This document shows, piece by piece, positions 1,861 to 5,670 of a DNA stretch of 10,329 nt (its first letter is position 1; every line of letters begins with the position of its first letter). The position numbers and the translations under genes are program-made. The notes under the pieces were generated by a model. It did no database searches. It was not told where the DNA came from and saw only the letters and a program-made list of their open reading frames with translations. The stretch is from Pelagibacteraceae bacterium AG-339-N18 (GTDB lineage: Bacteria > Pseudomonadota > Alphaproteobacteria > Pelagibacterales > Pelagibacteraceae), in the NCBI GenBank assembly GCA_003282055.1, contig QCAD01000028.1, positions 1-10,329 of the forward strand, read 5' to 3'.

Positions 1861-1888
1861 CTTGAAAAAATTAAATTAATCCCCACAT
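1861..1888 (+). promoter_or_regulatory. Sigma-32 (RpoH) type heat-shock promoter of hsp20
   Basis: A -35 element CTTGAAA (1861-1867) is followed by a 13-base spacer and a -10 element CCCCACAT (1881-1888). The E. coli sigma-32 consensus is CTTGAAA, 11-16 bases, CCCCATNT, so this is a near-perfect match. It lies directly ahead of a small heat-shock gene. Transcription would start about 6-8 bases further on, near 1895. The match is seen in sequence; use by RpoH is inferred. Confidence 0.85.
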
Positions 1889-1896
1889 AAGTATTG

Positions 1897-1950
1897 TTGG
1901 CTGCCTAATGGGGCCAGTATAAATAAACTTGCTTAACAAAGGAGGATATT
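1897..1950 (+). promoter_or_regulatory. ROSE-like RNA thermometer in the hsp20 leader
   Basis: The predicted leader is about 55 bases and folds into two hairpins. Hairpin 1 pairs UUGGC (1897-1901) with GCCAG (1913-1917) and continues as C1904-C1905 with G1910-G1911 around a UAAU loop. Hairpin 2 pairs CUUGCUU (1928-1934) with AAGGAGG (1939-1945) around an AACA loop. All positions pair (U1929 with G1944 as a wobble) except G1931 opposite G1942. A UUGCU anti-Shine-Dalgarno with one G-G mismatch is the signature of ROSE thermometers ahead of small heat-shock genes in alpha- and gammaproteobacteria. At low temperature the ribosome site would be hidden; heating would melt it. The leader is shorter than classical ROSE leaders. 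Function is inferred. Confidence 0.75.
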
Positions 1951-2397
1951 ATGACAAGTAAGGATTTATCTATATTTAACTCACTGAGACCTTTTTCAAT
2001 TGGTTTTGACGACATGTTTGATCAATTCGAAAACATGCTTGGTAACGGTTCTTTGACTATGCAGTCAAATTACCCACCATACAATATCAGGAAAACTGGA
2101 AAAGATAATTACGAAATTGAACTAGCGTTAGCCGGTTTTAATAAAAAAGATGTTGAAGTTGAGTTTGAGGATAATTTATTAACTGTTAGAACTAAACAAG
2201 TTGATAAATCTCAAGATAACAATTCTGATGGAGAGATAATCCATAAAGGTATTTCTCAAAGACAGTTTGCTCGATCATTTACTATTGCAGATGATGTAAA
2301 AGTGAATGGAGCCGAGCTTAAAGATGGTCTTTTGACAATATCTTGTGAAAGGATTGTTCCAGAGCATAAAAAGAAAAAACTTATCGAAATTAAATAA
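1951..2397 (+). CDS. ibpA: Small heat shock protein Hsp20, IbpA type
   Basis: This is an ATP-independent holdase that binds unfolding proteins in the cytoplasm and passes them to DnaK and ClpB. The protein has 148 residues, close to E. coli IbpA. An N-terminal arm carries SIGFDDMFDQFE, which resembles the IbpA stretch SAIGFDRLFNHLE. The alpha-crystallin domain runs from about YPPYNI (41-46) through ALAGF (59-63) and DNLLTV (74-79) to GLLTI (126-130). The C-terminal anchor IEI (145-147) is the I-x-I motif that fits a neighbouring subunit's groove. The ATG at 1951 sits 5 bases after AAGGAGG, one of only two strong ribosome sites in the window. Control is probably double: a sigma-32 promoter for transcription and a ROSE-like leader for translation. 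A hairpin follows the stop. The IbpA-like class is clear; the exact orthologue name is less so. Confidence 0.95.
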   Translation: MTSKDLSIFNSLRPFSIGFDDMFDQFENMLGNGSLTMQSNYPPYNIRKTGKDNYEIELALAGFNKKDVEVEFEDNLLTVRTKQVDKSQDNNSDGEIIHKGISQRQFARSFTIADDVKVNGAELKDGLLTISCERIVPEHKKKKLIEIK

Positions 2398-2867: not shown

Positions 2868-4178
2868 ATGCTTGATAAATATTTTAATTACAAAAAACAT
2901 AAAACTAATTTTAAAACAGAAGTAATTGCTGGAACGACTACGTTTTTAACCATGGCATACATCATGTTTTTAAACCCATTTATATTGTCTGGAGAATTTG
3001 CTGGACCCGAAAAAGGTTTTTTTGATTTTGGAGCTGTGTATACAGCAACAATTTTAGCAACTGCATTGGCTTGCTTTATTATGGCTTTTTATGGAAAAAC
3101 GTGGCCAATAGGACTTGCTCCTGGAATGGGTATAAATGCGTTTGTTGCTTTTGGTGTTTGTGCTGGTATGGGATATACACCACAAGAAGCTCTGGGCGCA
3201 GTTTTAGTAGCAGGTGTATTATTTTTAATTATCTCTTTAACACCAATCAGAGCTTGGTTAATTAATTCTATACCCAAAAGTTTGAAGTTAGGAATAGGCG
3301 CAGGAATAGGTTTATTTTTAGCAATAATTGGTCTTCAAATAATGGAAGTTGTAGTTGATAATCCAGTTACACTAGTTCAACTTGGTAACTTAAGTGATCC
3401 TTTGGTGTTGTTAGGTTGTGCGACTTTTATTGCAATAATTGTTTTAGACAAAATGAATGTCAAAGGAAATATTATTATAGGCATTCTAGTATTTAGTATT
3501 ATTGCTTGGGCTACAGGTTTAGCTAAATTTAATGGTATTGCAAGTTCACCACCACCAATGACATATCTATTTGAGTTTGATTTATCAGCAGCGATGACGG
3601 CTGGTATGTCAACAGTAATATTCACTTTATTATTTATAGATTTTTTTGATACCGCAGGAACCTTAACTTCGGTAGCCAATGTTGCAGGTAAAGTAGGAAA
3701 GGATGGTAAGGTTCAGGATATCAACAAAGCAATGCTGTCTGACAGTGTAAGCACGGTTGCTGGTGCTGTAATGGGAACTACAACAGTCACAAGTTATGTT
3801 GAGTCTGGAGCGGGTGTTAAAGCGGGTGGTAAAACTGGAATGACATCTCTTGTCATTGGTATACTTTTTCTTGCTTGTATATTTTTTGCACCATTAGCTA
3901 CTAGCTTGCCAAAACAAATTGATGGTGCGGCTTTGCTTTTTGTGTCAGTTCTTTTTATTAGAAATATAACCGATATTGAATGGAATGATATTTCAGAATC
4001 TGCTCCAGCAATTCTTGCTATGATTTCAATGCCTCTGACATATAGTATAAGCAATGGTATTGCTTTAGCATTTGTCTCTTATGCATTAATCAAGATATTT
4101 ACTGGTAAATTTTCTACTACATCGCCAGCTATTTGGGTTATTGCAATTTTAAGTGTAGTAAGTTTCGCTGTAGCATAA
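2868..4178 (+). CDS. Purine base permease, NCS2/AzgA family
   Basis: This inner-membrane transporter has 436 residues, the usual length of AzgA-type (COG2252) members, which import guanine, hypoxanthine, adenine or xanthine by proton symport. The start MLDKYFNYKKHKTNFKTE leads into AGTTTFLTMAYI, a typical AzgA opening. Core motifs are LAPGMGINAFVAF (83-95), DFFDTAGTL (258-266) and the TTTVTSYVESGAG stretch (304-316), which is close to the family's TSSVTTYVES motif and is followed by VKAGGKTG. These cover the substrate-binding half-helices. Hydrophobic segments occur throughout and fit the 14-helix NCS2 fold. The facing gene encodes a purine-type phosphoribosyltransferase, which would trap imported bases as nucleotides, so purine salvage is the likely role. 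A palindromic terminator follows. Family is secure; which purine is carried cannot be told from sequence. Confidence 0.95.
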   Translation: MLDKYFNYKKHKTNFKTEVIAGTTTFLTMAYIMFLNPFILSGEFAGPEKGFFDFGAVYTATILATALACFIMAFYGKTWPIGLAPGMGINAFVAFGVCAGMGYTPQEALGAVLVAGVLFLIISLTPIRAWLINSIPKSLKLGIGAGIGLFLAIIGLQIMEVVVDNPVTLVQLGNLSDPLVLLGCATFIAIIVLDKMNVKGNIIIGILVFSIIAWATGLAKFNGIASSPPPMTYLFEFDLSAAMTAGMSTVIFTLLFIDFFDTAGTLTSVANVAGKVGKDGKVQDINKAMLSDSVSTVAGAVMGTTTVTSYVESGAGVKAGGKTGMTSLVIGILFLACIFFAPLATSLPKQIDGAALLFVSVLFIRNITDIEWNDISESAPAILAMISMPLTYSISNGIALAFVSYALIKIFTGKFSTTSPAIWVIAILSVVSFAVA

Positions 4179-4190
4179 ATAAATATTAAT

Positions 4191-4223
4191 AGGGCTAGTT
4201 AACTAGCCCTGTTTACTTTTTTT
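4191..4223. terminator. Bidirectional intrinsic terminator shared by permease and phosphoribosyltransferase genes
   Basis: A perfect 20-bp palindrome at 4191-4210 (AGGGCTAG, TTAA centre, CTAGCCCT) forms an 8-bp GC-rich stem. On the + strand a seven-T run follows at 4217-4223. On the - strand the exit side reads ATTAATATTTATTTAT, also T-rich. The stem contains the stop codon (4203-4205) of the opposing gene, so that gene's last codons lie in or against the terminator. Confidence 0.85.
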
Positions 4224-4730
4224 GATAATCTCTTTTATAGATATTTCCTCATAATGTTCAGTTGGTTGAACAATCCAAGGATCTGAGTTGAGCTTAATAG
4301 GACAAAAATCTGGTTCAAAAGTTGAGGATTTTTTTTTCCATAAACAGGCTGTCTTAATTTCTTTTATAAAATTTTTTGTTGGTCCGTAACTCTTCAACCA
4401 TTCTATACTCTTATTTAAAGTTAAGCCTGTATCTGATAAATCATCAATTAAGAGTACTCTTTTAAAATCTTTATCATTTGCTAGTGAGCTTATTTCCCTT
4501 GCAAACATTAGTTGACCTTGTTGGTCCTCAATGCCTTTTCCTGAATAACTTTGGATAACAATATATGCTATAGGAAGTTTTAATATTCTCGAAAGTATGT
4601 CAATAATTGGTGCAGCACCCCTCATTATTCCAACTAAGACAGTGGGATGGTAATTATTGTGGATTTCGATGGCTAATTTTTCAACAATTTTTGTATATTC
4701 TTCAAATGATATAATTAATTTATCTGCCAT
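4203..4730 (-). CDS. Purine-type phosphoribosyltransferase (COG2236-like)
   Basis: A cytoplasmic type I phosphoribosyltransferase, likely joining PRPP to hypoxanthine, guanine or xanthine to give the nucleotide. From MADK the protein has 175 residues. It shows the pyrophosphate loop VGIMRGAAP (33-41), the PRPP-binding signature VLLIDDLSDTGLT (92-104) with paired acidic residues, and a C-terminal DPWIVQPTEHYEE resembling the WIVFPWE motif of microbial hypoxanthine-type enzymes. The frame is open upstream to an ATG at 4811, but that start would overlap the divergent glycosyltransferase gene and adds a non-family, Phe-rich tail. I chose ATG 4728-4730 (MADK); ATG 4743-4745 (MIKKFMADK) is possible. 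Neither has a Shine-Dalgarno. The gene ends inside the terminator shared with the purine permease, and the pairing supports purine salvage. Family is firm; the base used is inferred. Confidence 0.85.
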   Translation of the reverse strand: MADKLIISFEEYTKIVEKLAIEIHNNYHPTVLVGIMRGAAPIIDILSRILKLPIAYIVIQSYSGKGIEDQQGQLMFAREISSLANDKDFKRVLLIDDLSDTGLTLNKSIEWLKSYGPTKNFIKEIKTACLWKKKSSTFEPDFCPIKLNSDPWIVQPTEHYEEISIKEIIKKSKQG

Positions 4731-4740
4731 AAATTTTTTT

Positions 4741-4746
4741 ATCATA
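4741..4746 (-). promoter_or_regulatory. Possible -10 element of the phosphoribosyltransferase gene
   Basis: On the - strand TATGAT lies 10 bases before the ATG at 4730. If used as a -10 box, the transcript would begin only a few bases before the start codon, giving a near-leaderless mRNA, in keeping with the lack of a ribosome site. No clear -35 is seen in the surrounding poly-T tract, so this is weak. Confidence 0.3.
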
Positions 4747-4779
4747 TAAAAAAAATTAAAAAAGATTAAAAAAGAACCT

Positions 4780-5670
4780 ATGAAAGTATTTGATTGTTTC
4801 ATGTATTTCAACGAGGACGTTGTTTTAGATCTAAGGCTTAATATGCTTGATAAATACGTTGACTACTTTGTAATCGTTGAAAGTAGCTTCACACATAAAG
4901 GTGATAAGAGAGAGCTTCAATTTGATAATAAAAAGTTTGAGAAATTTAAAGATAAAATTATTTATTTAGTATACGAAAAAAGACCTAATAATATTAAAGA
5001 AATTTTGAATGATGAGCATGAAGACGATAAATCAAGAAAATATATATTTAATTCAATCTTAAGAGAAAATGGACAAAGAAACTTTATACTCAATGGATTA
5101 GAAGATGCAAATGAAGATGACTTGATTTTAATTTCAGATGTAGATGAGATACCAAATTTGGAAAGATTGGAAATTGGTAACATTAATCAAAAAATAATAA
5201 TGTTTAAACAGGAAATGTTTTATTATAAATTTAATCTTAAATTACCCAACTTTAATTGGACTGGGACTAAAGCTTGCAAGAAAAAATATTTAAAATCTCC
5301 TCAATGGTTGAGAAACATTAAAGATAGAAAATATTCTTTATATAGATTTGATGTTTTATTTTCTGAAACAAAGTTTATAGACCTCAAAATAATAGAAAAT
5401 GGAGGATGGCATTTTACAAACCTAAAAAGTGCTGAAGAAATAGAACATAAACTAAGATCATATCTGCATCACAGGGAGTTCGATGTGAACCCTATTTCTA
5501 TAAATGAAATCAATAATATAATTAAAAATAAAATAGCTATTTATGATCTAACTTTAGATAAAAGGACCCAAAAAATAGGTCATGGTAAAAAACTTGAAAA
5601 GTATCCACTAGACAGATTGCCAAAATTTTTGCAAGATAATTTACATAATTATCAAGAATGGATAGACTAA
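4780..5670 (+). CDS. Glycosyltransferase family 17 protein
   Basis: This is a predicted sugar-nucleotide transferase of 296 residues, matching family GT17 (PF04724), whose eukaryotic founder adds a bisecting N-acetylglucosamine to N-glycans. It opens with VFDCFMYFNEDVVLDLRL and YFVIVESSFTHKG (29-41), both typical of the family. The metal/nucleotide-binding DxD motif appears in LILISDVDEIP (115-125), and GGWHF (208-212) is the other hallmark block. No signal peptide or membrane helix is visible, so it probably works on the cytoplasmic side, on a lipopolysaccharide, capsule or other glycan. No other glycan gene is nearby, so the acceptor is unknown. ATG 4780 lacks a Shine-Dalgarno and lies 49 bp from the divergent phosphoribosyltransferase. 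A DUF1330 gene follows after one base. Family is clear; donor and acceptor are not. Confidence 0.9.
   Translation: MKVFDCFMYFNEDVVLDLRLNMLDKYVDYFVIVESSFTHKGDKRELQFDNKKFEKFKDKIIYLVYEKRPNNIKEILNDEHEDDKSRKYIFNSILRENGQRNFILNGLEDANEDDLILISDVDEIPNLERLEIGNINQKIIMFKQEMFYYKFNLKLPNFNWTGTKACKKKYLKSPQWLRNIKDRKYSLYRFDVLFSETKFIDLKIIENGGWHFTNLKSAEEIEHKLRSYLHHREFDVNPISINEINNIIKNKIAIYDLTLDKRTQKIGHGKKLEKYPLDRLPKFLQDNLHNYQEWID

What the first reader, a model, noticed from the sequence alone, without database searches (positions are those of the whole stretch)
1897..1950. Minimal ROSE-type RNA thermometer ahead of hsp20
CUUGCUU at 1928-1934 pairs with the Shine-Dalgarno AAGGAGG at 1939-1945 across an AACA loop, with a single G1931-G1942 mismatch. 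This is the exact logic of ROSE elements (UUGCU against AGGAG with a non-Watson-Crick G-G). A second, GC-rich hairpin (1897-1917) begins about where the predicted heat-shock transcript starts. At about 55 bases, with two hairpins, it is more compact than the multi-hairpin ROSE leaders described in rhizobia. The only other strong AAGGAGG site (2857-2863, purine permease) has no such partner, which argues against chance.
Basis: partly seen in the sequence, partly recalled or inferred. Interest (0 to 1): 0.7.

Follow-up and report, generated by a model that had tools for sequence, protein, structure and literature searches.

The report
Heat-sensing RNA leader of hsp20
The start of the hsp20 message in this SAR11 ocean bacterium carries a short two-hairpin RNA of the ROSE type that very probably keeps the chaperone gene silent until it warms up, and the same kind of leader sits in front of hsp20 in many marine phages.

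Summary
CUUGCUU (1928-1934), loop, AAGGAGG (1939-1945) and a 5' hairpin (1896-1918) lie between a sigma32-like promoter and hsp20. Rfam ROSE_3 finds it at E=0.001 but below the gathering score. Comparison supports a short ROSE-like thermometer: hairpin I covaries, the anti-SD/SD core is nearly invariant, and in 297 genomes of the order the 218 with a close hsp20 are exactly the 218 with a strong leader match. Two corrections: relatives favour the ROSE register with a bulged G over the G-G mismatch (UCGCU in 76 of 121 motif-bearing distinct viral leaders), and two-hairpin ROSE leaders are known in Pseudomonas (PMC3669281).

The wider find: a model built only from SAR11 leaders hits the hsp20 start in 199 of 233 viral hsp20 loci, and is best there in 10 of 10 whole phage genomes, with hosts SAR11, Methylophilales and cyanobacteria. 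Six searches showed no paper on this. Side hypothesis: synonymously invariant codons 2-4 (AAGUAAG) compete for the anti-SD. No temperature response was measured; all is sequence inference.

The parts
1861..1867 (+). sigma32-like -35 element CTTGAAA
   Evidence: 0 of 200 shuffles for the whole pattern; TTGAA in 102 of 104 distinct SAR11 leaders
1881..1888 (+). sigma32-like -10 element CCCCACAT; transcript start inferred about 1893-1896
   Evidence: start inferred, not mapped
1896..1918 (+). hairpin I: arms 1896-1902/1912-1918, bulged G1903, CC1904-1905/GG1910-1911 cap, loop UAAU 1906-1909
   Evidence: covariation, 4 of 9 pairs changed on both sides; RNAalifold; bulged-G CC/GG hairpin in 97 of 104 SAR11 and 89 of 156 viral distinct leaders, 2 of 230 controls
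1928..1934 (+). anti-Shine-Dalgarno strand CUUGCUU with the ROSE motif UUGCU (1929-1933), bulged or mismatched G1931
1939..1945 (+). Shine-Dalgarno AAGGAGG, partner strand of hairpin II
1928..1945 (+). hairpin II, the proposed temperature-sensing stem; bulged-G register 1928-1944, 1929-1943, 1930-1942, 1932-1941, 1933-1940, 1934-1939
   Evidence: RNAalifold on 41 leaders; UCGCU relatives
1956..1962 (+). AAGUAAG (last base of codon 2, codons 3 and 4), complementary to CUUGCUU; possible competitor strand
   Evidence: codons 2-4 are the only 3 of 125 degenerate, amino-acid-conserved codons without a synonymous change in 78 distinct CDS; ensemble calculation
1951..2397 (+). hsp20 (IbpA-like small heat shock protein, 148 aa)
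   Evidence: PF00011 64.3 bits, cut-off 20.8

Best explanation
The leader of hsp20, about 55-58 nt, is a short ROSE-like RNA thermometer of Pelagibacteraceae (SAR11). Transcription starts from a sigma32-type promoter right at hairpin I. At low temperature CUUGCUU pairs imperfectly with the Shine-Dalgarno (a bulged or mismatched G weakens the stem) and hinders ribosome binding. On warming, this stem opens and Hsp20 is translated, while the GC-rich hairpin I stays folded. Shown by sequence: anatomy, position, conservation, covariation of hairpin I, strict co-occurrence with hsp20, and the same kind of leader in phage hsp20 genes. Inferred: transcript start, temperature dependence and translational repression.
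For: Rfam: ROSE_3 26.9 bits, E 0.001 (search of 301 bases), and ROSE 20.9 bits at the exact site. Covariation on A2 (35 distinct rows; 41 of the 76 rows of A1 were used): cells with a change on both sides 19 observed, 8.5 shuffled, 0 of 500 shuffles as high; pairs with such a change 4, 3 of 500 as high; further pair types 14, 30 of 500 as high; sliding the 3' partner by 1 to 3 columns lowers pairing from 97.5% to 41-68%. RNAalifold finds both hairpins unaided. Co-occurrence: 218 genomes with close hsp20 (E<=1e-30) = the same 218 with a leader match at E<0.01, out of 297 (handle lists transcribed and compared). Divergent hsp20 of the same order: 18 of 18 read leaders have UCGCU before GGAG. Promoter and fixed spacing. 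Deep subclades shift the pairing to CCUUGCU/AGGAGG in 21 of 29 loci, keeping a stem. Known relatives are proven thermometers: the Pseudomonas ibpA leaders tested induce 3.3 to 8.3 fold from 25 to 42 C (PMC3669281, section read).
Against: Below the Rfam gathering score (26.9 against 43; 20.9 against 45), as are all 20 SAR11 and viral loci given. Hairpin II is conserved but does not covary: none of its 6 pairs has a change on both sides in A2, so pairing there rests on conservation and register shifts. Single-sequence folding is no better than shuffles, and ViennaRNA predicts that in this window hairpin II falls from 0.56 at 5 C to 0.12 at 37 C and is already the minority at 15 C, so the standard energy model would leave the SD half open at ordinary sea temperatures. 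In the same model L355 and L358 are open and L372 and L381 closed at all temperatures, and in L375 the SD closes with warming. No expression data.
Confidence: 0.83

Rival explanations
1. Three-strand switch: codons 2-4 (AAGUAAG, 1956-1962) compete with the SD for CUUGCUU, so warming moves the anti-SD from the SD to the coding strand instead of simply melting a hairpin.
For: Codons 2-4 (ACA AGT AAG) are the only synonymously invariant ones of 125 degenerate codons with conserved amino acid, 78 of 78 distinct CDS (codons 84 and 142 also show one codon for their main residue, but the residue varies there). AGT is 35 of 707 Ser codons and AAG 209 of 1037 Lys codons in the rest of hsp20. 23 of 29 deeper loci start ATGACAAGTAAG. 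Ensemble for the window: anti-SD:coding helix 0.35 at 5 C, 0.85 at 37 C; of 300 synonymous recodings 8 reach the observed value at 5 C, 2 at 15 C, 0 at 25 C and 37 C. L354, whose protein starts MSKNALS, still has AGTAAG.
Against: Over 97 distinct SAR11 leaders the median anti-SD:coding probability is only 0.01 at 5 C and 0.16 at 37 C. L372, L375 and L381 have other starts. Not looked for systematically in phages. Start-proximal codons can be constrained for other reasons; energy models handle ROSE cores poorly (recalled).
Confidence: 0.2
2. Hsp20 binds its own leader and represses translation, as reported for E. coli IbpA; hairpin I with its conserved bulged G and GCC-loop-GG apex is the binding site, and temperature acts indirectly.
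For: The apex is kept while stems change (31 different 4-bp stems among 89 viral leaders). The arginine needed in E. coli IbpA (R93, PMC10474464, passages including parts of the abstract) has an apparent counterpart: the motif GI..R.F in 80 of 80 SAR11 proteins and some R.F match in the scanned region of 10 of 10 phage proteins, doubtful in L150 (the place of R93 in the sequence is recalled and no alignment was made).
Against: That arginine motif may simply be common in small heat shock proteins; nothing here tests binding; the anti-SD/SD core explains repression without a protein. The two could coexist.
Confidence: 0.2
3. Only a 5' stabilising hairpin followed by a strong SD; the CUUGCUU match is a side effect of conserved sequence and has no temperature role.
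For: Single-sequence folding is not remarkable; hairpin II shows no double change.
Against: U(U/C)GCU before the SD recurs in divergent leaders at 121 of 138 against 8 of 251 control starts, and the motif changes (UU/UC, CCUUGCU) can keep pairing.
Confidence: 0.08
4. Chance or artefact.
For: Rfam scores lie below gathering thresholds.
Against: Identical sets of 218 genomes; best hit in 10 of 10 phage genomes.
Confidence: 0.01

Closest known systems
Short ROSE-like RNA thermometers of Pseudomonas ibpA (PMC3669281)
   Same: Two hairpins, sigma32 promoter, stable hairpin I, second hairpin made almost only of U(U/C)GCU against the SD, in front of an IbpA-type gene.
   Different: Host group; AT-rich; there the core is flanked on both sides by G-C pairs, here the lower flank is C-G but the upper one U-A; function untested here.
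Rfam RF02523 ROSE_3 and RF00435 ROSE
   Same: Matches both models from first to last position, including the bulged-G hairpin I and the UUGCU/AGGA core.
   Different: Scores below gathering; a middle part of RF00435 (31 model positions) is absent.
ROSE-G motif ahead of ABC transporter genes (PMC12857270, passages read)
   Different: Motif CUGCU, here UUGCU; other genes; relatives here favour the bulged-G register.
Possible RNA thermometer in the SAR11 genome HIMB5 (PMC6429828, passages and one section read)
   Same: Same clade; could be this very leader.
Cyanophage small heat shock proteins (PMC3827213, abstract read and terms searched)
   Same: The kind of phage hsp20 genes whose leaders are described here; [quoted passage not shown]
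   Different: Its main text has no thermometer, promoter, upstream or untranslated.

Membership tests
Short ROSE-like RNA thermometer | Lies in the 5' leader of a small heat shock gene, directly at the start codon | tested here: met
Short ROSE-like RNA thermometer | U(U/C)GCU pairing imperfectly with the SD with a bulged G | tested here: met
   UUGCU 1929-1933 against AGGAG 1940-1944; RNAalifold register
Short ROSE-like RNA thermometer | One or more GC-rich 5' hairpins | tested here: met
   hairpin I 1896-1918, covariation
Short ROSE-like RNA thermometer | sigma32-type promoter for the transcript | tested here: met
   consensus match only; no transcript mapped
Short ROSE-like RNA thermometer | SD exposed and translation raised by heat | not testable with these tools
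   ensemble calculation points that way on average, not in every leader, and is no measurement
Rfam RF02523 ROSE_3 | Score at or above the gathering cut-off (43 bits) | tested here: not met
   26.9 bits, E 0.001 in a 301-base search; so it is not filed as an RF02523 member
Rfam RF00435 ROSE | Score at or above the gathering cut-off (45 bits) | tested here: not met
   20.9 bits, E 0.48
ROSE-G | CUGCU motif with its bulged G facing a bulged G of the SD | tested here: not met
   motif is UUGCU; definition from PMC12857270 passages
fourU thermometer | Four U's pairing with the SD | tested here: not met
   no UUUU between 1920 and 1945; definition from the start of the PMC10586365 abstract as listed

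The most novel reading that the evidence does not exclude
The leader is a travelling module: T4-like marine phages (and some smaller pelagiphages) that infect SAR11, Methylophilales and cyanobacteria carry hsp20 together with a ROSE-type thermometer, so that these viruses translate their own chaperone according to temperature, including inside cyanobacteria.
Probability: 0.75. Interest if true: 0.8.

Novelty: new member of a known kind. Interest (0 to 1): 0.6.

Why it matters
SAR11 are among the most numerous bacteria in the ocean and are known for few regulators (recalled). A strictly hsp20-linked thermometer gives a concrete, testable temperature sensor in them. The same kind of leader in phages of SAR11, methylotrophs and cyanobacteria suggests that marine viruses tune a chaperone gene to temperature, which bears on infection in a warming ocean. 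The over 200 distinct natural leaders collected here (104 SAR11, 138 to 161 viral, by the stretch compared) allow one to ask what hairpin I is for; the function of such 5' hairpins is called not fully understood (PMC3669281).

Tried and rejected
Folding the window leader alone: no signal. Search of the window's own genome: none is held. Secondary model hits: four were looked at. L332 lies inside a coding frame; L333 and L334 were read only as DNA and show no ROSE motif; the HTVC008M hit lies just before hypothetical gp166 and has no UUGCU. The other weak hits were not examined. Of the 225 genome hits, 7 are weak (E 0.01-0.05), 6 of them in genomes without an hsp20 match at E<=1e-10. Model misses: 34 of 233 viral loci have no model hit (E<=1) at the hsp20 start, among them L090, L091, L093 and L095, which carry UUUGCUU before the SD, and L133, where I see no anti-SD. 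Of 138 distinct viral leaders 10 have CUGUCU, 4 ACGCU and 3 no recognised anti-SD; for L300 the script probably chose a wrong start, since one search has a good hit. The H1 figure printed used a wrong base pair and is not used.

Alignment A2 left out 35 of the 76 rows of A1: 18 whose SD MAFFT had shifted by a column (14 of them the AAGGAGU clade) and 17 near-duplicates, so its covariation counts do not cover that clade. In one search one CDS of 441 nt and duplicates were dropped (81 to 78).

fourU and ROSE-G were considered and rejected. Hsp20 phylogeny was not rebuilt; for cyanophages I rely on the abstract of PMC3827213.

Full report
What is there. Between a prolyl oligopeptidase gene (100-1851) and hsp20 (1951-2397; PF00011) the window has a sigma32-like promoter (CTTGAAA-N13-CCCCACAT, 1861-1888; no match in 200 shuffles), a 9-bp hairpin with one bulged G (1896-1918), an A/U-rich linker, and CUUGCUU-AACA-AAGGAGG (1928-1945) five bases before the AUG. 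The best 80 relatives of Hsp20 in genome contigs (89-97% identical) all come from records titled Pelagibacteraceae, Pelagibacterales or Pelagibacter, so the window is SAR11.

Known families. At gathering thresholds Rfam finds nothing in the window. With permissive thresholds the two best of five matches to the region are ROSE_3 (26.9 bits, E 0.001, 1895-1956) and ROSE (20.9 bits, E 0.48), both over the full model and both aligning the UUGCU/AGGA core and the bulged-G 5' hairpin. The alignment to RF00435 skips 31 middle positions. The gathering cut-offs (43 and 45) are not reached, so I call it ROSE-like and do not file it as a member of either Rfam family. At gathering thresholds no ROSE match appears in 20 further loci, 16 viral and 4 SAR11.

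Relatives in SAR11. Of the 80 loci, 79 have enough upstream sequence and give 75 distinct leaders. In alignment A1 (window plus 75) AACUUGCU, GCC and GG of hairpin I and ATGACAAGTAAGGA are invariant. On A2 (41 rows, 35 distinct) hairpin I has 4 of 9 pairs with changes on both sides (3 of 500 shuffles reach 4); cells changed on both sides number 19 against 8.5 in shuffles, 0 of 500 as high; further pair types are 14, 30 of 500 as high; 97.5% of cells pair, against 41 to 68% when the 3' side is slid by 1 to 3 columns. Hairpin II has no double change: 4 of 6 pairs never vary. RNAalifold finds both hairpins without being told.

Register. ViennaRNA gives the G-G form of hairpin II -3.1 and the bulged form -0.3 kcal/mol at 37 C. 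RNAalifold chose the bulged form. Relatives favour it: in leaders with UCGCU (76 of the 121 motif-bearing among 138 distinct viral leaders; 18 of 18 divergent leaders of the same order) the C faces G in the bulged form but A in the G-G form. Of 79 SAR11 leaders 14 have AAGGAGU and 4 AAGGAGA, which costs the G-G form its bottom pair. ROSE-G, a motif with facing Gs, has CUGCU (PMC12857270, passages).

How strict is the link with hsp20. In 297 genomes of the order, a model of the leader (R1, from A2) has a match at E<=0.05 in 225 and hsp20 a match at E<=1e-10 in 259. Leaving out 7 weak leader matches (E 0.01-0.05) and 41 divergent hsp20 matches (all weaker than 1e-30, most near 1e-26), 218 remain on each side and the two sets are identical (lists transcribed by hand). 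Of 20 listed genomes without a leader match, 18 have a divergent hsp20, and all 18 have UCGCU before GGAG, by eye mostly with a further hairpin in between. In the deeper loci fetched the stem shifts to CCUUGCU/AGGAGG in 21 of 29. Hairpin I starts 29 nt after TTGAA in 86 of 100 measured leaders, as expected if it begins at the 5' end of the transcript (inferred).

Phages. Looking for relatives in viral contigs showed the same two-part leader ahead of phage hsp20. R1, made from SAR11 leaders alone, was given 233 of 240 viral hsp20 loci (7 left out for lack of upstream sequence: L106, L132, L145, L146, L177, L221, L288). At E<=1 a hit ends at the hsp20 start in 66 of 74, 68 of 80 and 65 of 79, together 199 of 233. 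Many of these loci are near-copies: 231 usable leaders are 138 distinct ones over the last 60 bases. Of these 121 have U(U/C)GCU before the SD, 10 CUGUCU, 4 ACGCU and 3 none recognised, against 8 of 251 other SD-bearing starts in the same loci. In ten complete phage records (54-196 kb) the best hit in the whole record is the hsp20 leader in 10 of 10, though weak in some (E 0.43 in S-PM2, 0.076 in HTVC115P). Twelve further records taken at even steps from a ranking of 506 (the first row was P-SSM4 again and the last, an E. coli phage record with a partial match, was not fetched; some of the twelve are near-copies) all have UCGCU before the SD and a GCC-loop-GG pattern; R1 reports a match around the start in 10 of 12, E 0.0003 to 0.43. 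Hosts in the records are SAR11 (HTVC008M, Mosig, HTVC115P, HTVC103P), Methylophilales (Melnitz), Prochlorococcus and Synechococcus. Independently, Rfam ROSE_3 matches three of 13 viral loci at E<=1, below its cut-off (L239 35.1, Melnitz 34.1, MED4-213 29.2 bits), and ten not. A bulged-G, CC/GG-capped hairpin occurs in 89 of 156 distinct viral leaders, with 31 different 4-bp stems, and one with another cap in 54 more; in SAR11 in 97 of 104 (2 with another cap, 5 missed); in control starts in 2 of 230 (25 with another cap). TATAAATA, the T4-type late promoter (recalled), precedes 34 of 161 distinct viral leaders, 58 by a looser pattern.

Mechanism. The best account is that of the Pseudomonas short ROSE-like leaders: hairpin I stays folded and hairpin II melts (PMC3669281; abstract and sections on conservation and discussion read). 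The ensemble calculation goes that way: SD unpaired 0.39 at 5 C and 0.73 at 37 C in the window; mean 0.29 to 0.43 over 97 distinct SAR11 leaders, with exceptions: L355 and L358 open and L372 and L381 closed throughout, L375 closing with warming. In the window it happens in an unexpected manner: the anti-SD leaves the SD for AAGUAAG in codons 2-4 (0.35 at 5 C, 0.85 at 37 C), already the majority at 15 C, which speaks against simple repression at ordinary sea temperature. Codons 2-4 are the only ones of 125 degenerate, amino-acid-conserved codons without synonymous change in 78 distinct genes, with codons for Ser and Lys that are rare in the gene, and of 300 synonymous recodings 8 reach the observed pairing at 5 C, 2 at 15 C and none at 25 or 37 C. 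In most other leaders the predicted coding pairing is small (median 0.01 at 5 C, 0.16 at 37 C). I hold this as a hypothesis at 0.2.

Novelty. For phage hsp20 thermometers I searched rna thermometer + bacteriophage + hsp20 (0 papers), hsp20 + cyanophage + thermometer, rna thermometer + cyanophage (listing only), rna thermometer + phage genome (listing only), hsp20 + cyanophage + heat shock protein (two of them looked into) and rose element + phage + small heat shock (listing only in that call); no title or abstract start reports it. PMC3827213 and PMC5028025 on viral Hsp20 do not contain the word thermometer in the main text. Phage thermometers as such are known: a fourU element ahead of blyA in prophage SP-beta and one ahead of a sigma70 gene found also in a Caudoviricetes phage (PMC11342760, first part of the results). 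For SAR11, (rose + rna thermometer + pelagibacter) listed 3 papers, one looked into by passages (PMC9111926), two as listing only; (sar11 + rna thermometer) listed 2: PMC2864753 mentions thermometers in general, and PMC6429828 mentions one possible RNA thermometer in HIMB5 without naming the gene. It may be this leader. The library holds only part of the literature. So the window's element is a new member of a known kind, possibly already noted in SAR11; the wide occurrence in marine phages seems new.

Noticed in passing
L108:1197-1247: A glutamine riboswitch aptamer (RF01739, 64.1 bits) lies just behind hsp20 (692-1144) on an IMG/VR contig that also has a thermometer-like hsp20 leader.
   Followed up: no
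L153, L390, L391, L392, L393, L394: In these six cyanophage stretches hsp20 directly follows regA, the translational repressor gene.
   Followed up: no
L335-L352, leaders: A divergent hsp20 (40-45% identical) in part of the order has UCGCU directly abutting AAGGAGG and, by eye in most, an extra middle hairpin.
   Followed up: partly
L119, L121, L122, L127, L129, L130, L136-L144: A phage group has AACUGUCUAAC(A)..GGAGGUU in place of the UUGCU motif, which would put other mismatches in the stem.
   Followed up: partly
L156: Unverified record Pseudomonas phage Y7 carries an Hsp20-like gene with a two-hairpin leader that looks like the Pseudomonas type; it may be bacterial DNA.
   Followed up: no
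window 1954-1962: Codons 2-4 of hsp20 (ACA AGT AAG) are synonymously invariant in 78 distinct SAR11 genes although AGT and AAG are rare in the gene.
   Followed up: partly
window 2868-4178 and 4203-4811: A xanthine/uracil-type permease and a phosphoribosyltransferase gene stand tail to tail behind hsp20.
   Followed up: no
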